This document shows positions 32,081 through 42,857 of a stretch of DNA of 64,000 bases, one piece after another. The notes under the pieces are model-generated. The model worked only from the letters and a program-made list of their open reading frames with translations, had not been told where the DNA came from and did no database searches. The position numbers and the translations under genes were made by a program. Position 1 is the stretch's first letter; every line of letters starts with the position of its first letter. Source of the stretch: Herpetosiphon giganteus. Lineage in GTDB: Bacteria > Chloroflexota > Chloroflexia > Chloroflexales > Herpetosiphonaceae. Location: contig NZ_JAFBCZ010000003.1 in NCBI RefSeq assembly GCF_016907925.1, positions 62,001 to 126,000 of the forward strand. The letters run 5' to 3'.

Positions 32081-32485
32081 ATGATGCGCTATATCTTGCT
32101 CAGCATAATCGCTATCTTTCTAGCAGGCTGTAGCTCGCAGGTTGTGGAAAAAGCTTATCCCGACCCGATGGAGATTTTGCCCTACCCGCGCGGAAGAGCA
32201 CTCGGCGAGGTCATTCAGGATGGCGGTTCTTTGGTTTTAGTAATGAAAACTCAGGACGAGCGGGCACAGGTGATTGATTGGTATAAGCGCCAATTTCCAG
32301 CCGATTGGCATTATTTAGAACAAGGCCCAACTTGGGTCATGTTTCTTAAGCAAGATCTGGTTGATTGTATGGATTATATGTATATGATCGATGACACTCC
32401 TTTTGAAAATAACGATAAAAAATACACATTTCAAATTAAAAGTCGGGTTCAACCAGGCTCAGTAGAATGCACGAAGAATAGATGA
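32081..32485 (+). CDS. Putative lipoprotein with DWYK...W motif (family member 2)
   Basis: The 134-residue lipoprotein (MMRYILLSIIAIFLAGC; lipobox LAGC with Cys17) resembles the one at 5019. Shared features are the short linker leading to ILPYPRGRALGE / IPAYPNSQLE, a DWYK core (QVIDWYKRQFPADW / KILDWYKQTLIQEGW), an internal Cys followed by aromatics (DCMDYMYMI / GCPRYYVTI) and a Cys near the C-terminus. Both copies are beside a large secreted or RHS protein. It is predicted to sit on the membrane surface. The start ATG 32081 is preceded by a weak AAGGATAG. Confidence 0.8.
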   Translation: MMRYILLSIIAIFLAGCSSQVVEKAYPDPMEILPYPRGRALGEVIQDGGSLVLVMKTQDERAQVIDWYKRQFPADWHYLEQGPTWVMFLKQDLVDCMDYMYMIDDTPFENNDKKYTFQIKSRVQPGSVECTKNR

Positions 32486-32572: not shown

Positions 32573-32601
32573 TTGACAGAGTATCGCTGGATGTGTATAC
32601 T
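32573..32601 (+). promoter_or_regulatory. Promoter of the ilv operon
   Basis: TTGACA (32573-32578), a 17-bp spacer and TATACT (32596-32601). The expected start near 32608 leaves about 26 nt before leader peptide 1 and about 568 nt before ilvD. Confidence 0.85.
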
Positions 32602-32633
32602 CTGCACAAATAACTTTTGTAGGAAACTACCAA

Positions 32634-32726
32634 ATGAGCAATCGTCCCGCGTTTATTATTATTAGCAACCTCCTTAGCCTCGTAATCGTCGTTATTACGC
32701 GGTCACTTTTATGTGGGAGGGGCTAA
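32634..32726 (+). CDS. Attenuator leader peptide 1, Ile/Leu/Val-rich
   Basis: A 30-codon ORF with AGGA at 32621-32624. Thirteen of 30 residues are Ile, Leu or Val: three consecutive Ile codons at 32655-32663, Leu-Leu at 32670, then Leu-Val-Ile-Val-Val-Ile at 32679-32696, and Leu-Leu at 32706-32711. The stop TAA is at 32724-32726. Its last codons overlap the segment gggaggggct (32715-32724), which equals the 3' arm of the downstream terminator. It should act by ribosome stalling when branched-chain aminoacyl-tRNA is low; the peptide itself has no other role. Confidence 0.88.
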   Translation: MSNRPAFIIISNLLSLVIVVITRSLLCGRG

Positions 32727-32787
32727 CAAGCCTCGCGGGTAGTTCAAAAGAACTCAAGCCCCTCCCAATTCGGGAGGGGCTTTTTGG
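32715..32787 (+). promoter_or_regulatory. Transcription attenuator of the ilv operon (antiterminator and terminator)
   Basis: Segment 2 gggaggggct (32715-32724), segment 3 agcccctccc (32757-32766) and segment 4 gggaggggct (32772-32781, followed by TTTTT) form two exclusive 10-bp helices. 2:3 is the antiterminator, enclosing small hairpins ggct-aaca-agcc and agttc-aaaa-gaact. 3:4 is the intrinsic terminator with a 5-nt loop. A ribosome that reaches the leader stop covers segment 2 and allows termination; one stalled at the Ile/Leu/Val codons leaves it free. Base identity of segments 2 and 4 is seen directly; the mechanism follows the known ilv/leu attenuation model. Confidence 0.88.
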
Positions 32788-32818
32788 TTAAGTTCGCTAG
32801 CTTCTGGAGGATAAACAC

Positions 32819-32929
32819 ATGCGGAACTTGTTGACACTTCTCGTCACCATGATCACTCCTCGTCCGCAGTTTATTATTCTCCAACCCATTCCCATTTGGT
32901 CGTGTCGCGTAGGCCGTCGCCTGCGCTAG
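32819..32929 (+). CDS. Leader peptide 2, Ile/Leu/Val-rich
   Basis: A 36-codon ORF begins 32 bases after the attenuator T-run, with a strong GGAGG at 32806-32810. Thirteen residues are Ile, Leu or Val: Leu-Leu-x-Leu-Leu-Val early, Ile-Ile-Leu at codons 19-21, and Ile-Pro-Ile at 24-26. Its end overlaps an 8-bp hairpin (gcgtaggc 32907-32914 with gcctgcgc 32919-32926, one G-U). A second hairpin, gttgcaa-tga-ttgcaac, follows at 32946-32962. No T-run terminator follows, so it may control a second step (translation, pausing or Rho-dependent termination). It could also be a spurious ORF, but RBS quality and composition argue against that. Confidence 0.7.
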   Translation: MRNLLTLLVTMITPRPQFIILQPIPIWSCRVGRRLR

Positions 32930-33175
32930 AGCGATAACCCGAACCGTTGCAATGATTGCAACAAACCCCTGAGCAGTGTCGCTCATTCGTTCAGCTCATT
33001 GATGAGTATGTTCGTTCATCTTTTGCCTGTGTTCAGCATCGGGACTGACAAGGCTTGCTTTCCTATTGCCAAAAATCGAGCGCTCTGTGGCCAATTCAAC
33101 TGGAGCATTGGCCCAAGCGAGCTTATTGCTGCGATGGCCAGTCCAGCCATCCACATCTCTATGCGGGGAGCATCT
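32930..33175 (+). promoter_or_regulatory. Distal ilvD leader
   Basis: Untranslated by my reading. It contains a hairpin at 32946-32962. tgagc (32970-32974) can pair with either of two gctca copies (32981-32985 or 32994-32998). A 7-bp ggccaat/attggcc pair is also present near 33100-33125. No T-box sequence was found. The frame upstream of ilvD is open back to 32999 but lacks a ribosome binding site. Confidence 0.45.
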
Positions 33176-34861
33176 ATGCGTTCAGATACGATCAAACGGG
33201 GCTTTGCACGCGCACCACATCGATCACTACTCCGTGCGACAGGCCAAATTCAAGACGATAGCGATTTTCAGAAGCCGTTCGTGGCAATCTGTAATTCGTA
33301 TATCGATATTATTCCTGGCCATGTCCACTTGCATGAGTTTGCCAAAATCGTCAAAGATGCGGTGCGCGCTGCTGGCGGCATTCCCTTTGAATTCAACACC
33401 ATCGGGGTCGATGATGGCATCGTCATGGGCCACGAGGGCATGCGCTATTCGTTGCCTTCGCGCGAGTTGATCGCCGATTGTGTTGAAACGGTGGCAGCAG
33501 CGCACTGCTTCGATGCGATGATCTGTATCCCCAACTGCGATAAAATTGTGCCAGGCATGCTGATGGGCGCTGCCCGCGTCAATATTCCCACCGTGTTTGT
33601 ATCTGGTGGGCCGATGCAGGCTGGCCGCGATAAAGATGGCAATAAAGTTGATCTGATCAGTGTCTTCGAGGGCGTTGGGCAACATGCCTCAGGCCGTATC
33701 AGTGATGAACGGCTGCTGGATTTGGAGCGCAACGGCTGCCCGACCTGTGGCTCGTGCTCCGGTATGTTCACCGCCAATTCGATGAATTGTCTGTGTGAAG
33801 CACTGGGAATCGCCCTGCCATACAACGGTTCATTACTGGCCACCGACCCCGCCCGCCACGAATTAGCCCGCACCGCCGCTAGCAAAGTCCTCGAATTACT
33901 CCACAACAATATTTCCTTCAACGATATTGTCACTCCCGAATCAATTGATAACGCCATGGCGCTTGATGTTGCGATGGGTGGCTCGACCAACACCGTCTTG
34001 CACGTCTTGGCCTTGGCCCGTGAAGCTGGCTTGGCTTATCCAATCAGCCGCTTTAACGAGGTTGCTGCTCGCGTGCCACACTTGGCCAAAGTTAGCCCAG
34101 CTTGGGATGGCGATCGTCAATGGCATATGGAAGATGTGCATCGCGCTGGCGGCGTGCCCGCAATTATGGCCGAATTGGCCAAAAAGCCCGATGCCTTGCA
34201 CCTGAACGTGCCAACCGTCACTGGCCAAACCTTGGGCGAGCAATTACAAGGCATCGCCAACGAAAACCCTGAATGCATTCGCCCAATCGAACATCCGCAT
34301 TCAGCCCAAGGTGGTTTGTGCATTTTGTTTGGCAACTTAGCTCCCGAAGGCTCAGTGATCAAAGTTGGCGCAGTTGATCAACATCAAATGACCTTTAGCG
34401 GCCCCGCTCGCTGTTTCCCCAGCGAAGAAGCCGCCACCTACGCCGCCCGTTCTGGCGAAATCCAAGCTGGCGATGTGGTGGTTGTGCGCTACGAAGGCCC
34501 ACGCGGCGGCCCAGGCATGCGCGAAATGCTGGCCTTGACCTCGTTGCTCAAAGGCATGCCGTTGGGCGAGCAAGTGGCCTTATTGACCGATGGTCGCTTC
34601 AGCGGCGGCACGCGCGGCCTGTGCATTGGCCATATTTCACCAGAAGCCGCCGAGGGTGGCCCGATTGGCCTGATCGAAAATGGCGACATCATTCATATCG
34701 ATTTAGCAAATCGCCTGTTGGCAGTCGAACTCAGCGAAGCGCAATTTGCCGAACGCCGCGCTGGTTGGCAAGCCCCAGAACGCAAACATCAACGCGGCTG
34801 GTTGGCACGCTACACCCGCTTGGTGACGAACGCCAGCAATGGCGCGGTGTTGGAAGCATAG
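33176..34861 (+). CDS. ilvD: Dihydroxy-acid dehydratase
   Basis: 561 residues from ATG 33176, chosen over an in-frame TTG at 32999 because GGGGAG lies 6 bases upstream and the family starts at MRSDTIKRG. The Fe-S cluster ligands are seen in [10 protein letters not shown] and [18 protein letters not shown]. Other family motifs are [29 protein letters not shown] and the C-terminal [10 protein letters not shown]. It dehydrates dihydroxy-isovalerate and dihydroxy-methylvalerate, the third step of valine and isoleucine synthesis. It is the first structural gene after the attenuator. Confidence 0.97.
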
Positions 34862-34896: not shown

Positions 34897-36609
34897 ATGA
34901 AAACGCTAACTGGTGCTCAAATGATGTGTGAAGCGTTGATAGCCGAGGGCGTTGATGTGATGTTTGGCTATCCTGGTGGGGCGATTATGCCGTTCTACCA
35001 TGCGCTGCCCGAATATCCTCAATTGCGCCATATTTTGGTGCGCCACGAACAAGCAGCTGGCCATGCCGCCGAAGGCTACGCCCGTACCAGCGGCAAAGTT
35101 GGGGTTTGCGTCGCTACCAGCGGCCCGGGCGCAACCAACTTGGTCACCGCAATTGCCGATGCGATGATGGATTCAATTCCAATCGTGGCAATCACTGGCC
35201 AAGTCGTCACCTCGTTGATTGGCAAAGATGGCTTTCAAGAAACCGATGTGACGGGCATCACCCAGCCAATCACCAAGCACAATTATTTGGTGACCGACGT
35301 GCGCGACCTGCCACGGGTGTTCAAAGAGGCCTTTCATATTGCGCGAACTGGACGGCCCGGCCCAGTGCTGATCGACGTTGCCAAAGATACCCAAAATGCT
35401 CGTGGCGTGTTCGAGTATCCAGCAACTGTCGATTTGCCTGGCTACAAGCCCAACTACGATGGCAATCGTCGCCAAATCAAAGAAGCTGCCAATTTGCTGA
35501 ATCAGGCCAAAAAGCCCTTGATTATGGCAGGCCATGGTATTTTGCTGGGCCACGCCAGCACCGAATTGCGCGAATTTGCCGAAAAAACTGGCATTCCGGT
35601 GATCACCACGCTGTTGGGTATTAGCTGTATTCCCGAAGATCATCCGCTATCGTTGGGTATGCCTGGCATGCACGGTTGGGTGCACGTCAATCGCGCGATT
35701 CAAGAATGCGATGTGCTGTTTACGATTGGCGCACGCTTCGACGACCGCGTAACTGGCAAATTGGATAGCTTTGCCCGCAATGCCAAAATTATTCACGTTG
35801 ATATTGACCCTGCTGAGGTTGGCAAAAACGTGGTAACTGCTGTGCCAATTGTCGGCGATGCCAAGCGAGTGCTGGAACATTTGACCGAAATTGCCAACCC
35901 CAACGACCACAGCGAATGGGTCAACCATATTCGCGAGGTTCAGGCAACTCGCTCCAAGCGCCAACGCGACCCTGAAAGCGCCATGTTCACGCCGCACCAT
36001 GTGTATGCTGAATTCACCCGCATTTTGCAAGGCGAATTTCGGGTTTGCACCGATGTGGGCCAGCACCAAATGTGGGCAGCCCAGTTGATCGAATATATGA
36101 AACCCCATACCCACATCACTTCTGGCGGCTTGGGCACGATGGGTTTTGCCTTGCCAGCAGCGATGGGCGTGCAAGTCGCTTGCCCCAACGAAGAAGTTTG
36201 GGCAATTGCTGGCGATGGCGGCTTTCAGATGAATTTGCAAGAGCTAGCCACGGTAGTCCAAGAAAGCCTGCCCTTGAAGATTTGTATCATCAACAACGGC
36301 TACTTGGGCATGGTGCGCCAATGGCAGGAGCTTTTCCACGAACGCCGCTATTCGGCAACGCCAATGTGGAGTCCCGATTTTATCAAACTGGCTGATGCTT
36401 ATGGGATTCCTGGGGTGCGCGTCGAGCGCGCCGAAGATGTGGCCGAAGCGATTCACCAAGCGCGGGCAACTAACGGGCCATTCTTGATTGAATTTGTGGT
36501 TGAGCGCGAAGTCAATGTCTATCCGATGGTGGCTCCAGGCGCAAGCATCAGCGATATGTTTGAAGATCCCAGCGAAGTCGAAATCGAAGACGTTGTGGCA
36601 GTGAAATAG
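34897..36609 (+). CDS. ilvB: Acetolactate synthase, large subunit
   Basis: The 570-residue thiamine-diphosphate enzyme condenses two pyruvates, or pyruvate with 2-oxobutyrate. The ThDP activating Glu is in RHEQAAGHAAEGYAR. The central FAD/transhydrogenase-like domain is near ARFDDRVTGKL. The ThDP/Mg motif is GDGGFQMNLQEL...IINN. The GFQ-x-TDV loop (DGFQETDVTGITQPITKH) is typical of AHAS rather than other decarboxylases. The start has AAGGCGAGG upstream, 35 bp after ilvD. It pairs with ilvN directly downstream. Confidence 0.97.
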   Translation: MKTLTGAQMMCEALIAEGVDVMFGYPGGAIMPFYHALPEYPQLRHILVRHEQAAGHAAEGYARTSGKVGVCVATSGPGATNLVTAIADAMMDSIPIVAITGQVVTSLIGKDGFQETDVTGITQPITKHNYLVTDVRDLPRVFKEAFHIARTGRPGPVLIDVAKDTQNARGVFEYPATVDLPGYKPNYDGNRRQIKEAANLLNQAKKPLIMAGHGILLGHASTELREFAEKTGIPVITTLLGISCIPEDHPLSLGMPGMHGWVHVNRAIQECDVLFTIGARFDDRVTGKLDSFARNAKIIHVDIDPAEVGKNVVTAVPIVGDAKRVLEHLTEIANPNDHSEWVNHIREVQATRSKRQRDPESAMFTPHHVYAEFTRILQGEFRVCTDVGQHQMWAAQLIEYMKPHTHITSGGLGTMGFALPAAMGVQVACPNEEVWAIAGDGGFQMNLQELATVVQESLPLKICIINNGYLGMVRQWQELFHERRYSATPMWSPDFIKLADAYGIPGVRVERAEDVAEAIHQARATNGPFLIEFVVEREVNVYPMVAPGASISDMFEDPSEVEIEDVVAVK

Positions 36610-36624
36610 GCTCAGGAGATTTTT

Positions 36625-37149
36625 GTGATGAAACATACCTTAGTCGCTTTGTTACGTGACCAACCTGGAGTGCTGAACCGCTCTGTGAGCCTGTTTCGCC
36701 GCCGTGGTTTCAATATCGAAAGCCTGACCGTTGGCCACACCGAAACCGCTGGCATCTCACGCATGACCTTGGTGATCGATGGCGATACCACCAGCGTCGA
36801 GCAAGTGATCAAACAACTCTATAAATTGATCGATGTGCTGAAGGTCAGCGACGTGACCCAAGATCCAAATGTCACTCGCGATTTGCTGCTGGTCAAGGTC
36901 TATGCACCACCAGCCAAGCGCAGCGAATTGATGCAATTGGCCGATATTTTCGGAGCCAAAATCGTCGATGTCGTGCCCGATGCCATGATGATCGAACTGA
37001 GCGGCAGCCCTGAACAGCTCGACCGCTTTGTTGACCTAATTCGCCCGTTTGGCATTCGCGAGATGGTGCGTACTGGCTGCGTGGCAATGACCCGTGGCGC
37101 TTCGACCATCAGCGGGCCATATCAAAGCCAAGAATTTCGCGCTGCTTAA
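36625..37149 (+). CDS. ilvN: Acetolactate synthase, regulatory small subunit
   Basis: 174 residues with an N-terminal ACT domain (LVALLRDQPGVLNRSVSLF, residues 5-23, typical valine-binding fold) and the C-terminal IlvN domain (RDLLLVKVYAPP..., GAKIVDV). It confers valine feedback inhibition and activates the large subunit. The start is GTG 36625 or ATG 36628, both within range of AGGAG (36614-36618). It is 15 bp after ilvB. Confidence 0.96.
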   Translation: MMKHTLVALLRDQPGVLNRSVSLFRRRGFNIESLTVGHTETAGISRMTLVIDGDTTSVEQVIKQLYKLIDVLKVSDVTQDPNVTRDLLLVKVYAPPAKRSELMQLADIFGAKIVDVVPDAMMIELSGSPEQLDRFVDLIRPFGIREMVRTGCVAMTRGASTISGPYQSQEFRAA

Positions 37150-37197
37150 TTGCATTCAACGAGGCAAACGCCTCTTCATTAATAAAGGATCACGACC

Positions 37198-37314
37198 ATG
37201 CTGCAACCAATGTTTGAAGAAGAAACCAACGCGACCGCTGATAAAGCCCACTATAGCGACGAAGATGTCAATTGGGATACCTGGTGGGGCGATTACGGCG
37301 AGACCATGGAATAA
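37198..37314 (+). CDS. 38-residue acidic, tryptophan-rich small protein in the ilv operon
   Basis: An ATG at 37198 with AAGGA (37186-37190) begins a 38-codon ORF between ilvN and ilvC. The product is strongly acidic (about 10 Asp/Glu, no Arg, one Lys) with a W-D-T-W-W-G-D-Y motif near the end. It fills most of the ilvN-ilvC gap. A hairpin, gaggc-aaac-gcctc (37161-37174), lies just before its RBS. The codon choices match the neighbouring genes. I know of no family; a small regulator or chaperone of AHAS or IlvC is only a guess. It could be non-functional, but the RBS and composition favour translation. Confidence 0.65.
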   Translation: MLQPMFEEETNATADKAHYSDEDVNWDTWWGDYGETME

Positions 37315-37364
37315 ACACGGGTAGCAATTGTTCATCGTTCAACCCATTTCCTAGTTATATTTGA

Positions 37365-38390
<1,026 letters not shown>

Positions 38391-38415
38391 TTAGGGAACG
38401 AGGGCTAGCGTTGCC

Positions 38416-38488
38416 GAAACCACGAAGGACACGAAGAGCACGAATATTAAATTTCATACTTCGCGTTCTTCGCGTTCTTCGGGGTTTC
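38416..38488. repeat. Imperfect inverted repeat (CACGAAG family)
   Basis: gaaaccacgaaggacacgaa (38416 on) and its diverged complement ending ttcttcggggtttc (38488) form a roughly 29-bp imperfect stem in the ilvC-leuA gap. Confidence 0.75.
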
Positions 38489-38526
38489 AATTGGCTCAAA
38501 CTATTGCCCTGATTACGGAGAACTTT

Positions 38527-40194
38527 ATGACCAGCGATTATGTACGAATTTTCGATACAACCCTGCGTGACGGTGAGCAATCACCAGGCTGCACCATGCA
38601 TCTGCACGAAAAGTTGGAAGTTGCCAAGCAATTGGCACGAATGGGTGTGGATATTATCGAAGCGGGCTTTCCGGCGGCCTCACCAGGCGATTGGGAAGCA
38701 GTTAACCAAATTGCCAAGAGCGTTGGCACTGCCGATGGTCCGGTGATCTGTGGTTTGGCGCGGGCAGTCAAAAGCGACATCGAAGCCTGTGCGACGGCAA
38801 TTGCACCAGCGGCCAAAAAGCGCATTCACACCTTCCTCTCAAGCTCAGATATTCATATCGAGTATCAATTGCGCTCGACCCGCGAGGAAGTGCTGACGAA
38901 AACCCGTGAGATGGTGCGCTTGGCTAGCTCGCTCTGCGCCGATGTTGAGTTCTCGCCGATGGATGCGACCCGTTCCGACATCGAATTTATGTATCAGATG
39001 CTGGCGATAGCGATTGAAGAAGGCGCAACAACCTTGAATATTCCTGATACCGTGGGTTATTCCACGCCTGAGGAATATGCAGCGTTGCTTCGGGGGATTA
39101 TCGAAAACGTACCTGGCGCTGCTGATGTGATTATCTCGACCCACTGCCACGACGATTTGGGCTTGGCAGTAGCCAATTCGTTGGCTGGCGTTCGAGCTGG
39201 CGCACGCCAAATTGAATGCACAATCAATGGCATTGGCGAGCGAGCTGGCAACGCTTCATTGGAAGAAGTGGTGATGGCGTTGGAAACGCGCAAGCAATTT
39301 TATGGCCTGAGCACCAACATCGACACCACCCAACTAACCCCTAGCTCGCGCTTGTTGAGCGCCTGCACCAACACCCAAGTGCCACCCAACAAGGCAGTTG
39401 TTGGCGCGAATGCCTTCGCTCACGAATCGGGCATTCACCAAGATGGCGTGTTGAAGCACCGTATGACCTACGAAATTATGAGCGCCGAATCGGTTGGCCA
39501 AGATGGCAATGCCTTGGTTTTGGGCAAGCACTCAGGCCGCCATGCCTTCCGCCATCGGGTGCAAGAATTGGGCTATAGCTTCGATGAAGCCACAATCAAC
39601 CACTTGTTTGCCCGTTTCAAAGATGTGGCTGATCGCAAGAAATATGTTGATGATCGCGATGTTGAAGCCTTGATTACTGATGAAGCAGGTCGCCCAAGCC
39701 CAGTCTATGAATTGGAGCATGTGCAATTTGCCTCAGGCGTGAACGCCATTCCAACCGCGACCGTGCGCATGCGCGGCCCCAACGGCGAAGTCAAAATCGA
39801 ATCGGCGCAAGGCACAGGCCCAGTCGATGCCGTCTATTCGGCGATCAACAAAGTGGTGCTGACTCCAGTTACCTTGCTCGAATTTGCGGTCAACGCCATC
39901 ACCGAAGGCATCGATGCGGTTGGCGAAGTTAGCGTGAAAGTGGTCGAAGGCAAGCATAAACATGTACGCGGCGTGCTAACCGACAAAGCAACTGATGCCA
40001 AAGTGTGGCGCGGCAATGGCGTTAATGTCGACATTATTGTTGCTGCCGCCGAAGCCTACGTTGGAGCTTTGAACAAATTGCTCAAAGCCCGCCAAGAACG
40101 GCTCAAGCAAGAAACTACCGCCCGCATGGAAGTTGCCAGCGCCGCGCCAGGCGTAGATCTGTTCGGTGGCTCGACGCTCGGTCGTTACGAATAA
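38527..40194 (+). CDS. leuA: 2-isopropylmalate synthase
   Basis: 555 residues from ATG 38527 (GGAG at 38517-38520; an upstream in-frame extension of 12 codons is untranslated repeat-derived DNA). The TIM-barrel signature DTTLRDGEQSPGC, HCHDDLGLAVANS and GIGERAGNA are present, then the LeuA dimerisation/allosteric domain (VNAITEGIDAVGEVSVKV). It commits 2-oxoisovalerate to leucine. The length matches the long, feedback-regulated form. Confidence 0.96.
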   Translation: MTSDYVRIFDTTLRDGEQSPGCTMHLHEKLEVAKQLARMGVDIIEAGFPAASPGDWEAVNQIAKSVGTADGPVICGLARAVKSDIEACATAIAPAAKKRIHTFLSSSDIHIEYQLRSTREEVLTKTREMVRLASSLCADVEFSPMDATRSDIEFMYQMLAIAIEEGATTLNIPDTVGYSTPEEYAALLRGIIENVPGAADVIISTHCHDDLGLAVANSLAGVRAGARQIECTINGIGERAGNASLEEVVMALETRKQFYGLSTNIDTTQLTPSSRLLSACTNTQVPPNKAVVGANAFAHESGIHQDGVLKHRMTYEIMSAESVGQDGNALVLGKHSGRHAFRHRVQELGYSFDEATINHLFARFKDVADRKKYVDDRDVEALITDEAGRPSPVYELEHVQFASGVNAIPTATVRMRGPNGEVKIESAQGTGPVDAVYSAINKVVLTPVTLLEFAVNAITEGIDAVGEVSVKVVEGKHKHVRGVLTDKATDAKVWRGNGVNVDIIVAAAEAYVGALNKLLKARQERLKQETTARMEVASAAPGVDLFGGSTLGRYE

Positions 40195-40244
40195 TTTGCG
40201 GCCTTGGTTCGCGCTGAATCAAGGCCCCTAGCCCAAACGAACTT

Positions 40245-41069
40245 ATGAAAATTGCTTATCTCGGCCCAGCTGGTACATTCAGCGAAAAAGCAGCGTTGGA
40301 AGCGGGCGACCAACAATCCACCTATTTGCCAATGGCAAGTATGCCCGCTGTGATGACGGCTGTTGAAACTCGAGCGGTTGATTATGGCATTTTGCCAATT
40401 GAAAACTCGCTCGAAGGCGCGGTGAGCATTACGCTCGATGTGCTGATTCACGAAACGCGGTTGCGGATTTGCCGCGAAATCGTGATTCCGATTCGACATA
40501 TGTTGGTGGCCAAGCCCGATGTGCAACTCGATACGATCGAAGTGCTGTATACCCACCAACAACCGCTGGCCCAATCACGCCGTTTTATCGAACGCTGCTT
40601 GCCGAATGTGCCAACCGTGGCCACGTTAAGCACTGCTGCTGCATTGGTCGAAGCGCTCGCTGATGAGCGCCGCGCCGCCGCATTGACCACCTTGCATGCT
40701 GCCGAACGCGCTCAAGCCAATATCTTGGCCTACGATGTTCAAGATACCACCAACAATCGCACCCGCTTTGTGGTTTTGGCTCCCGAGGATGCCGCGCCAA
40801 CTGGCGACGACAAGACTTCGCTGATGTTTACATCGAAGGTCAATCGCGCTGGAGCCTTGCACGAAGCCTTGGCAATTTTCGCCCAAGCTGGGATCAATTT
40901 GAGCAAAATCGAATCGCGGCCAGCCAAAGCCGAGCTTGGCGATTATGTTTTTCTCGTAGACATCGATGGCCATCGTCATGAGCCAAGCGTTGCCGAAGCC
41001 CTGCAAAAGCTGGCAACCATCGCTGGGCGGGTCAAGATTTTTGGTAGTTATCCAAAGTTTAGAACATAG
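40245..41069 (+). CDS. pheA: Prephenate dehydratase
   Basis: The 274-residue monofunctional enzyme has the PDT domain (GPAGTFSEKAA, PIENSLEGAV, TRFVVLA) and an ACT regulatory domain with GALHEALAIF and the phenylalanine-binding motif LSKIESRP. It makes phenylpyruvate from prephenate. It is the only aromatic gene in the cluster, lying between leuA and cimA in the same direction; branched-chain aminotransferases can also use aromatic keto acids, a possible reason for the linkage. It has no obvious promoter of its own. Confidence 0.96.
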   Translation: MKIAYLGPAGTFSEKAALEAGDQQSTYLPMASMPAVMTAVETRAVDYGILPIENSLEGAVSITLDVLIHETRLRICREIVIPIRHMLVAKPDVQLDTIEVLYTHQQPLAQSRRFIERCLPNVPTVATLSTAAALVEALADERRAAALTTLHAAERAQANILAYDVQDTTNNRTRFVVLAPEDAAPTGDDKTSLMFTSKVNRAGALHEALAIFAQAGINLSKIESRPAKAELGDYVFLVDIDGHRHEPSVAEALQKLATIAGRVKIFGSYPKFRT

Positions 41070-41103
41070 AACATACATAAATCTATGAATCAATTGCGAT
41101 ATT

Positions 41104-41204
41104 CCCTCACCCCCAGCCCCTCTCCCACGGAGCGGGAGAGGGGAGTTTAGTTGAACCAATTCCCCCTCGCTCGCGTGCGGGAGAGGGGGCTAGGGGGTGA
41201 GGGG
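41104..41204. repeat. CCCTCACCCCCAGCCCC inverted module
   Basis: Two inverted arms, ccctcacccccagcccctct at 41104 and gggagagggggctagggggtgagg ending near 41204, fill the pheA-cimA gap. Related copies are at 17389, 49067 and 59411. Confidence 0.8.
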
Positions 41205-41261
41205 ACGCAAATTTTTGCCAAAGTCATAAATCATTCGATCTATGTTCTAGGAGTGTGACAC

Positions 41262-42857
41262 ATGCAAATATTTTTATATGATACAACGCTGCGGGACGGC
41301 ACTCAACGCGAAGGGCTTTCGTTATCGTTAGCCGATAAACTGAAAATCGCTCGCGAACTTGATCGCTTTGGCATGCACTATATCGAGGGTGGTTGGCCTG
41401 GCTCGAACCCCAAGGATGCAGCATTTTTTGCCGAAGCTGCCAAAATGGAGTGGAAGCACGCTAAGATTGCGGCATTTGGTTCAACCCGTCGCGCCAATAG
41501 CAAACCAGAAACCGATGCCAACCTCAAGGCATTGCTCGATGCTAACACGCCAGTCGTCACTTTGGTTGGCAAATCGTGGACCTTGCACGTAACCGAGGTG
41601 CTGGAAACCACGCTCGAAGAAAATTTGGCCATGATTCGTGATAGTGTAGCTTTGATGAAAGCCAACGGCAAAGAAGTTATTTATGATGCAGAGCACTTTT
41701 TTGATGGCTTCCGTGCTGATAATAGCTATGCGCTAGCCACCATCAACGCTGCCGCCGAAGCAGGAGCCGATTGGATTGTGCTTTGCGATACCAACGGCGG
41801 CTCGCTGCCCGATTGGATCAGCGCCGTGGTGCAGCAAGTCAAGGGCAAAATCAAGACCCAACTGGGGATTCATACTCACAACGATAGCGAGTTGGCGGTA
41901 GCAAATTCGTTGGCGGCGATTGTCGCTGGTTGTCGCCAAGTGCAGGGCACGATCAACGGCTATGGCGAGCGCTGCGGTAACGCCAACTTAATTTCGATCA
42001 TTCCCAATTTGCAACTGAAAATGGGTATGTTCTGTGTGCTGCCCGACCAACTGCAACGCTTGACTGAGCTTTCGCGCACGGTCAGCGAGATTGCCAATTT
42101 GAACCCTGACGAACATGCCGCCTACGTTGGCAACAGCGCGTTCGCCCATAAAGGCGGGATTCACGTTGCAGCAGTGGCCAAAGTTGAACATTCGTATCAG
42201 CATATCGACCCAGTGCAAGTTGGCAATCGCAAACGAGTGGTGATTAGCGAGCTTTCAGGCCGTGGCAACATCAAAATGCGCGCCGAGGAATTGGGTGTGG
42301 AGAGCGCAGGCCTCGAACGTGGCGTACTCGAACGGGTCAAATTACTCGAAAGCAAGGGCTTTCAGTTCGAAGCAGCTGAAGGTTCATTTGAATTATTGGT
42401 GCGCCGTGCTGCTGCCGATTATACCGCGCCCTTTAAATTGCTCGATGTCGTGACGATTGTTGAGCAGCGGCGTGGGGTTGAGATGCAGGCCGAGGCAACA
42501 GTTAAGCTACAAATTGGCGAGGAAATTTATCATACAGCAGCTTCGGGCAACGGCCCAGTTAACGCGCTTGATCAAGCAATGCGCAAAGCGTTGCTCGCGC
42601 GCTACCCAGAATTGGCCGATGTGCATCTCGTCGATTACAAAGTGCGGATTCTCGATTCGGAATCGGCAACTGGCGCAACCACCCGCGTTTTGATCGAGGC
42701 CGCGATGGGCGAAGAACGCTGGACAACCGTTGGCTGCTCGGAAAATATTATCGAAGCCAGCTGGCAAGCCTTGGTCGATTCGCTAGAATTGCCCTTGGTT
42801 CGCGCCCAAAGCAACCAACCAGTGCTACTCAAACACGCCGAAACCGTCGCGGCGTAA
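41262..42857 (+). CDS. cimA: (R)-citramalate synthase
   Basis: 531 residues. The HMGL-like barrel motif is DTTLRDGTQREGLSLS, with HTHNDSELAVANS and NGYGERCGN. The length and the TQREGLSLS variant separate it from leuA. It condenses pyruvate and acetyl-CoA to citramalate, which LeuCD and LeuB then carry to 2-oxobutyrate for isoleucine. This replaces threonine deaminase, which is absent here. The C-terminal LeuA-dimer domain suggests isoleucine feedback. The start is the ATG at 41262. Confidence 0.93.
   Translation: MQIFLYDTTLRDGTQREGLSLSLADKLKIARELDRFGMHYIEGGWPGSNPKDAAFFAEAAKMEWKHAKIAAFGSTRRANSKPETDANLKALLDANTPVVTLVGKSWTLHVTEVLETTLEENLAMIRDSVALMKANGKEVIYDAEHFFDGFRADNSYALATINAAAEAGADWIVLCDTNGGSLPDWISAVVQQVKGKIKTQLGIHTHNDSELAVANSLAAIVAGCRQVQGTINGYGERCGNANLISIIPNLQLKMGMFCVLPDQLQRLTELSRTVSEIANLNPDEHAAYVGNSAFAHKGGIHVAAVAKVEHSYQHIDPVQVGNRKRVVISELSGRGNIKMRAEELGVESAGLERGVLERVKLLESKGFQFEAAEGSFELLVRRAAADYTAPFKLLDVVTIVEQRRGVEMQAEATVKLQIGEEIYHTAASGNGPVNALDQAMRKALLARYPELADVHLVDYKVRILDSESATGATTRVLIEAAMGEERWTTVGCSENIIEASWQALVDSLELPLVRAQSNQPVLLKHAETVAA

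What the first reader, a model, noticed from the sequence alone, without database searches (positions are those of the whole stretch)
32573..32787. Classical ribosome-stalling attenuator controlling the ilv operon in a Chloroflexi-type genome
Seen directly: consensus promoter (TTGACA-17-TATACT), a 30-codon leader with Ile-Ile-Ile and Leu-Val-Ile-Val-Val-Ile runs, and identical 10-base segments at 32715 and 32772, both complementary to 32757-32766, with a T-run after the second. These give mutually exclusive antiterminator and terminator helices. The stop codon sits on segment 2, as the model needs. Known attenuators of this type are best described in Proteobacteria and Actinobacteria; finding one here upstream of ilvD would extend the range.
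Basis: partly seen in the sequence, partly recalled or inferred. Interest (0 to 1): 0.78.

Follow-up and report, generated by a model that had tools for sequence, protein, structure and literature searches.

The report
Ribosome-stalling attenuator of the ilv operon
Just upstream of the genes that make isoleucine, leucine and valine, this Chloroflexota genome carries a textbook switch in which a ribosome stalling on those codons decides whether transcription stops; the same switch sits before ilv genes across much of the phylum, sometimes followed by a second conserved small gene of unknown role.

Summary
A promoter, a 30-codon leader rich in Ile, Leu and Val, and three segments giving mutually exclusive antiterminator and terminator hairpins precede ilvD-ilvB-ilvN-ilvC-leuA. 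Sixty simulated windows gave no such arrangement. A covariance model of the leader, run blind on 82 genomes of the order, hit 63; the best 30 hits all lie directly upstream of ilvD or ilvB. A refined model extended this to the class (33 of 34 inspected hits before ilvB, one at a contig end) and phylum (30 of 40 before ilvD or ilvB). The terminator stem has compensatory changes in 10 of 11 pairs; the antiterminator tracks it in this class but is not supported in several outer families. No Rfam family reaches threshold, and no paper found reports it in Chloroflexota, though one key 2010 survey could not be read. It is a new, widespread member of a known kind; regulation itself is untested. Beyond the finding, a second small ORF (32819-32929) between terminator and ilvD belongs to an undescribed conserved small-protein family tied to this attenuator in at least 12 genera.

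The parts
32573..32601 (+). sigma-70-type promoter, TTGACA - 17 - TATACT
   Evidence: 11 of 12 consensus matches; both hexamers conserved at this place in all eight loci of the family; function not tested
32621..32625 (+). Shine-Dalgarno-like AGGAA of the leader ORF
   Evidence: sequence; AGGA conserved in all eight loci of the family
32634..32726 (+). leader peptide ORF, 30 codons: MSNRPAFIIISNLLSLVIVVITRSLLCGRG
   Evidence: differences between near species are almost all synonymous (dN 0-0.015, dS about 0.15 between subclades)
32655..32663 (+). control codons Ile8-Ile9-Ile10 (ATT ATT ATT)
   Evidence: sequence
32679..32696 (+). control codons Leu16-Val-Ile-Val-Val-Ile21; a ribosome stalled here should leave segment 2 free
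   Evidence: sequence; role inferred from footprint geometry
32661..32679 (+). segment 1 (ATTAGCAACCTCCTTAGCC), can pair with segment 2
   Evidence: duplex about -17.7 kcal/mol, best 1:2 pairing in L003-L005; a competing pairing with 32636-32653 is as good in the window's own sequence; inference
32715..32724 (+). segment 2, GGGAGGGGCT, overlapping the leader stop codon
   Evidence: identical to segment 4, complementary to segment 3; invariant in all eight loci of the family
32756..32766 (+). segment 3, shared arm of antiterminator and terminator
32772..32785 (+). segment 4 and T-run; with segment 3 an intrinsic terminator
   Evidence: 11-pair stem; covariation over 32 loci, 10 of 11 pairs changed on both sides, 98% of cells paired
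32806..32929 (+). second small ORF (32819-32929, 36 codons) with Shine-Dalgarno GGAGG at 32806-32810: MRNLLTLLVTMITPRPQFIILQPIPIWSCRVGRRLR
   Evidence: conserved small-protein family right after the attenuator in at least 12 genera of the order; between genera dN/dS below 1, 3rd codon positions most variable
33176..34861 (+). ilvD, first enzyme gene (Shine-Dalgarno GGGGAG at 33165-33170)
   Evidence: Pfam ILVD_EDD_N and ILV_EDD_C; near orthologues align from this ATG
34897..42857 (+). rest of the operon: ilvB, ilvN, ilvC, leuA, pheA, cimA/leuA-like
   Evidence: Pfam; all on the + strand; co-transcription inferred

Best explanation
This is a ribosome-mediated transcription attenuator of the ilvD-ilvB-ilvN-ilvC-leuA operon, of the E. 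coli ilv/leu kind. Transcription starts near 32608 and a ribosome begins the leader ORF at 32634. With enough charged Ile-, Leu- and Val-tRNA the ribosome runs to the stop codon at 32724 and covers segment 2, segment 3 pairs with segment 4, and RNA polymerase terminates near 32785. With scarce Ile, Val or Leu the ribosome stalls on codons 8-21, segment 2 is free and pairs with segment 3 (antiterminator), and the operon is transcribed. With no ribosome, a 1:2 pairing should favour termination. Shown by sequence and comparison: the parts, their conservation before ilv genes, covariation of 3:4, and co-change of segment 2 with 3 and 4 in this class. Inferred: the start site, ribosome positions, termination and the response to amino acids.
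For: Exact anatomy and energetics; unique in the window and absent from 60 simulated windows. Leader, stop-codon segment and terminator conserved in the family and order. Blind whole-genome searches: 63 of 82 genomes of the order, top 30 hits all before ilvD or ilvB; class, 33 of 34 inspected hits before ilvB; phylum, 30 of 40 inspected stretches with ilvD or ilvB downstream. 3:4 covariation: 98% paired, covariation score 0.481 against 0.225 shuffled, 0 of 500 shuffles as high. Segments 2, 3 and 4 change together: GGGAGGGGC/GCCCCTCCC here, GCGGAAGG/CCTTCCGC in L009 and L010, GAGAGG/CCTCTC in L056. Own-locus 2:3 pairing beats swapped segment 3 over 96 loci, -14.6 against -12.8 kcal/mol, Wilcoxon p 3e-7 (related loci are not independent). 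In one relative the same model hits before leuS, and that leader has eight Leu codons and no Val: MIMIDKRYNTLLLSLRLLLARGSLAWGA, as a codon sensor predicts.
Against: No expression, termination or ribosome data. A stricter rank test of 2:3 pairing is weak overall (13 of 96 loci reach rank 0.05 or less) and negative in outer families such as f19 and f35. The terminator is followed by about 390 nt of leader with another ORF, so it may not be the only control. Ten of 40 inspected stretches in outer classes do not have ilvD or ilvB by tblastn; some of these precede another thiamine-pyrophosphate enzyme gene.
Confidence: 0.93

Rival explanations
1. The hairpin is an ordinary intrinsic terminator of the upstream gene (32081-32485), and the leader ORF and repeat are coincidental.
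For: A strong stem with T-run does lie downstream of that gene.
Against: A consensus promoter and a conserved ORF lie between the two; the sequence upstream of the promoter differs among relatives while promoter, leader and hairpin stay with ilvD; model hits follow ilvD and ilvB across the phylum.
Confidence: 0.02
2. The leader is a T-box, riboswitch or protein-bound attenuator that senses tRNA or metabolite directly, and the short ORF is incidental.
For: T-boxes do occur in this family: Rfam RF00230 at 95.3 bits before leuS in L250; a ppGpp riboswitch class that controls branched-chain genes is mentioned in PMC8632094.
Against: No Rfam family reaches threshold in the window; the best sub-threshold matches are the ribosome attenuators Phe_leader (26.5 bits against 55) and His_leader. 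The peptide, not a fold upstream of the hairpins, is what is conserved, and it is Leu-rich where it precedes leuS.
Confidence: 0.02
3. Control is mainly downstream: the second ORF (32819-32929) and the ~250 nt before ilvD form a second, perhaps translational or Rho-linked, switch, and attenuator 1 is minor.
For: Conserved second ORF with a strong Shine-Dalgarno; in Chloroheliales relatives a different second ORF ends in a long Ile/Leu/Val run with a conserved complementary stretch after it.
Against: The downstream region 32930-33075 folds no better than shuffles (z -0.6); many relatives have attenuator 1 and no recognisable second ORF.
Confidence: 0.03

Closest known systems
E. coli/Salmonella ilv, leu and his operon attenuators (leader peptide with control codons; Rfam holds Leu_leader RF00512, His_leader RF00514, Phe_leader RF01859)
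   Same: Leader ORF with runs of the regulated amino acids, stop codon at segment 2, exclusive 2:3 and 3:4 helices, T-run, biosynthetic operon downstream.
   Different: No match above threshold to any Rfam leader family; segment 2 is an exact copy of segment 4, a very simple geometry; a second conserved small ORF follows.
ilvB leaders of Actinobacteria (Corynebacterium, Mycobacterium, Streptomyces; PMC1262725, PMC11857589, PMC10272879, PMC13236596)
   Same: Branched-chain-rich uORF, terminator and antiterminator before ilvB; in M. tuberculosis control codons LVVI.
   Different: Other phylum; here ilvD is the first gene, and ilvB in most other Chloroflexota hits; no Rfam family links them.
T-box leaders (RF00230), which occur before leuS in the same family
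   Same: Also transcription attenuation in response to amino-acid supply.
   Different: Senses uncharged tRNA directly; no match at this locus.

Membership tests
Ribosome-mediated transcription attenuator of amino-acid operons (mechanistic class) | Translatable short leader ORF with a run of codons for the regulated amino acids | tested here: met
   32634-32726 with Shine-Dalgarno; Ile/Leu/Val runs; peptide conserved
Ribosome-mediated transcription attenuator of amino-acid operons (mechanistic class) | Intrinsic terminator between leader ORF and first structural gene | tested here: met
   (sequence only)
Ribosome-mediated transcription attenuator of amino-acid operons (mechanistic class) | Antiterminator helix mutually exclusive with the terminator, segment 2 at the leader stop codon | tested here: met
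   10-base copy at 32715-32724; co-change in the class; not supported in some outer families
Ribosome-mediated transcription attenuator of amino-acid operons (mechanistic class) | Cognate biosynthetic operon downstream | tested here: met
   ilvD-ilvB-ilvN-ilvC-leuA; relatives before ilvD or ilvB
Ribosome-mediated transcription attenuator of amino-acid operons (mechanistic class) | Termination relieved by starvation for the control amino acid, dependent on leader translation | not testable with these tools
   needs RNA and reporter experiments
Rfam amino-acid leader families (Leu, His, Phe, Trp, Thr) | Score at or above the gathering threshold | tested here: not met
   Phe_leader 26.5 bits against 55, His_leader 21.7 against 49
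T-box | Match to RF00230 | tested here: not met
   no match in the window

The most novel reading that the evidence does not exclude
The attenuator gates a second, previously undescribed product: a conserved 30-46-residue protein (amphipathic start, Pro-Val/Ile-Pro middle, Arg-rich end), encoded right after the terminator and so made only on readthrough. In Chloroflexales it would be a starvation-induced small protein or second leader acting on branched-chain amino-acid synthesis.
Probability: 0.4. Interest if true: 0.7.

Novelty: new member of a known kind. Interest (0 to 1): 0.5.

Why it matters
A 2013 comparative study that included five Chloroflexi genomes suggested that amino-acid attenuators may have arisen in gamma-Proteobacteria with few transfers (PMC3766115). 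A conserved ilv attenuator across Chloroflexota, with similar leaders before ilvD in Gemmatimonadetes and Desulfobacteria, argues that this control is older or has arisen more often, and that annotation misses it because no family model covers it. The same family uses a T-box for leuS, so two kinds of amino-acid sensing coexist, and one relative has a leader peptide before leuS instead. The linked small-protein family gives a concrete new object to test.

Tried and rejected
T-box or other Rfam element at the locus: none. Conserved RNA fold downstream of ORF2: no better than shuffles. Widespread leuS attenuator in the family: found only in G006; others have no Leu-rich leader, L250 has a T-box. 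First alignment mixed strands of loci and was redone. Strict rank test for 2:3 pairing over the phylum: weak, so the antiterminator claim is limited to the class. ORF2 and the Chloroheliales second ORF share a PRPQ motif; common origin not shown.

Full report
What is there. The leader ORF (32634-32726) reads MSNRPAFIIISNLLSLVIVVITRSLLCGRG. Its last codons and stop form segment 2 (GGGAGGGGCT, 32715-32724), which is repeated exactly as segment 4 (32772-32781) and is complementary to segment 3 (32757-32766). The antiterminator folds at -26.4 and the terminator at -22.8 kcal/mol, and none of 200 shuffles of either folds as well. A mechanical search for this arrangement finds one place in the window and none in 60 simulated windows on either strand. 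Pfam confirms the downstream genes: ilvD, ilvB, ilvN, ilvC, leuA, pheA and a second LeuA/cimA-like gene. The start of ilvD at 33176, behind GGGGAG, is the point from which near orthologues align.

Conservation in the family. In eight genomes of the window's family the promoter, the leader, segment 2 at the stop codon and the terminator stay together before ilvD, while the sequence upstream of the promoter differs. Within the genus, nucleotide changes in the leader are almost all synonymous. Segment 2 is invariant in all eight while neighbouring codons vary.

Blind searches. A covariance model from six loci was run on 82 genomes of the order: 63 had a match at E of 1 or better, and each of the 30 best hits lies directly upstream of ilvD or ilvB, although the model contains no part of either gene. 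The 35 leaders read out are 23-34 residues with a hydrophobic Ile/Leu/Val core. A second model from 32 loci found matches in 112 of 158 genomes of the class (E 0.1 or better). Of 34 inspected hits in the class but outside the order, 33 precede ilvB and one is at a contig end. In the phylum 120 of 400 genomes had a match at E 0.02 or better, and of 40 inspected stretches outside the class 30 have ilvD or ilvB downstream by tblastn. Among the other ten, some lie before a different thiamine-pyrophosphate enzyme gene, in two cases with ilvC further downstream, and some near a PucR-type regulator gene; the rest are unexplained. Partial hits to the terminator alone are probably chance.

Covariation. 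On 32 loci of the order the terminator helix has 98% of cells paired, 10 of 11 pairs with changes on both sides and a covariation score of 0.481 against 0.225 in shuffles (0 of 500 as high). This alignment was fitted to the model, so it leans towards the structure; sliding the partner by one column drops pairing to 66-75%. For the antiterminator, three clades show segments 2, 3 and 4 changing together: GGGAGGGGC/GCCCCTCCC here, GCGGAAGG/CCTTCCGC in L009 and L010, GAGAGG/CCTCTC in L056. Over 96 loci the pairing of segment 2 with its own segment 3 is stronger than with those of other loci (-14.6 against -12.8 kcal/mol, Wilcoxon p 3e-7), though related loci are not independent. A stricter rank test is weak, with 13 of 96 loci at rank 0.05 or less, and gives no support in outer families such as f19 and f35. 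I therefore limit the full antiterminator claim to this class.

Specificity. In one relative (G006) the same model hits before leuS. That leader has eight Leu codons and no Val (MIMIDKRYNTLLLSLRLLLARGSLAWGA), which is what a codon sensor predicts. Other members of the family lack such a leader before leuS, and one has a T-box there.

Mechanism. Codons 16-21 are the best placed sensors: a ribosome stalled there should cover segment 1 but not segment 2, which begins at 32715, whereas one at the stop codon covers segment 2. These positions follow from general footprint sizes and are inference. Nothing here measures transcription.

Relation to known systems. It works like the E. coli ilv attenuator and like the ilvB leaders of Actinobacteria (PMC1262725; PMC11857589; PMC13236596 for M. 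tuberculosis). It is not a member of any Rfam leader family. Text searches found no report in Chloroflexi; one directly relevant survey (Lopatovskaya et al. 2010) is cited in PMC4833913 but not held, so priority is open. Similar leaders precede ilvD in two Gemmatimonadetes MAGs, two Desulfobacteria and an unnamed bacterium, so the kind is not confined to Chloroflexota.

The second ORF. Between terminator and ilvD lies a 36-codon ORF (32819-32929) with Shine-Dalgarno GGAGG. Related ORFs sit at the same place in at least 12 genera of four families of the order. A profile search of 82 genomes gave 16 hits at E below 1e-6, all just downstream of an attenuator found by the RNA model; two of them, G060 and G073, belong to genera not in the profile. 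Between genera dN/dS is 0.16-0.6 with third codon positions most variable, and in-frame identity (0.34) exceeds the other frames (0.15, 0.16; the alignment was made in frame, which favours this). Within the window's genus the comparison is too shallow to tell. NCBIfam has no model for it. It is a conserved small protein or second leader, made only after readthrough if attenuator 1 works as proposed; its role is unknown. Chloroheliales relatives have a different second ORF that ends in a long Ile/Leu/Val run.

Verdict.

Noticed in passing
window 32819-32929: Second small ORF after the terminator, member of an undescribed conserved small-protein family (amphipathic start, VPVP/PIPI middle, Arg-rich end) tied to the ilv attenuator in at least 12 genera.
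   Followed up: partly
L084, L085, L090, L103 (Chloroheliales-like family f5), about 420-650 on the + reading: A second, long Ile/Leu/Val-rich leader ORF between attenuator and ilvB, ending in VLILLGL*, with a conserved downstream stretch AGAGCCAAGC complementary to its end: possibly a second switch in tandem.
   Followed up: partly
L249 (G006): Leu-rich leader and terminator before one of two leuS genes, where other members of the family have no such leader and L250 has a T-box.
   Followed up: partly
L252 about 1145-1205 (window genome, outside the window): T-box-like motif (GCAGGGTGGTACCACGG, then a T-rich terminator) upstream of leuS; below the Rfam threshold, seen by eye.
   Followed up: no
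L169 and L170 (Gemmatimonadetes MAGs): Ile/Leu/Val leader followed by two successive terminator-like hairpins before an ilvD 72% identical to the window's.
   Followed up: no
L141, L142, L148, L164 (family f43): Two attenuator-like hits one to five kilobases apart, one near a PucR-type helix-turn-helix gene (identified in L142) and one before an ilvB or thiamine-pyrophosphate enzyme gene.
   Followed up: partly
L158 (G197) and L117 (G005): Model hits near pyrimidine genes (carA-like; pyrR-like, by eye); may be chance.
   Followed up: no
window 32756-32782, - strand: The terminator stem also has a T-rich tail on the other strand, so it may stop transcription from both sides.
   Followed up: no
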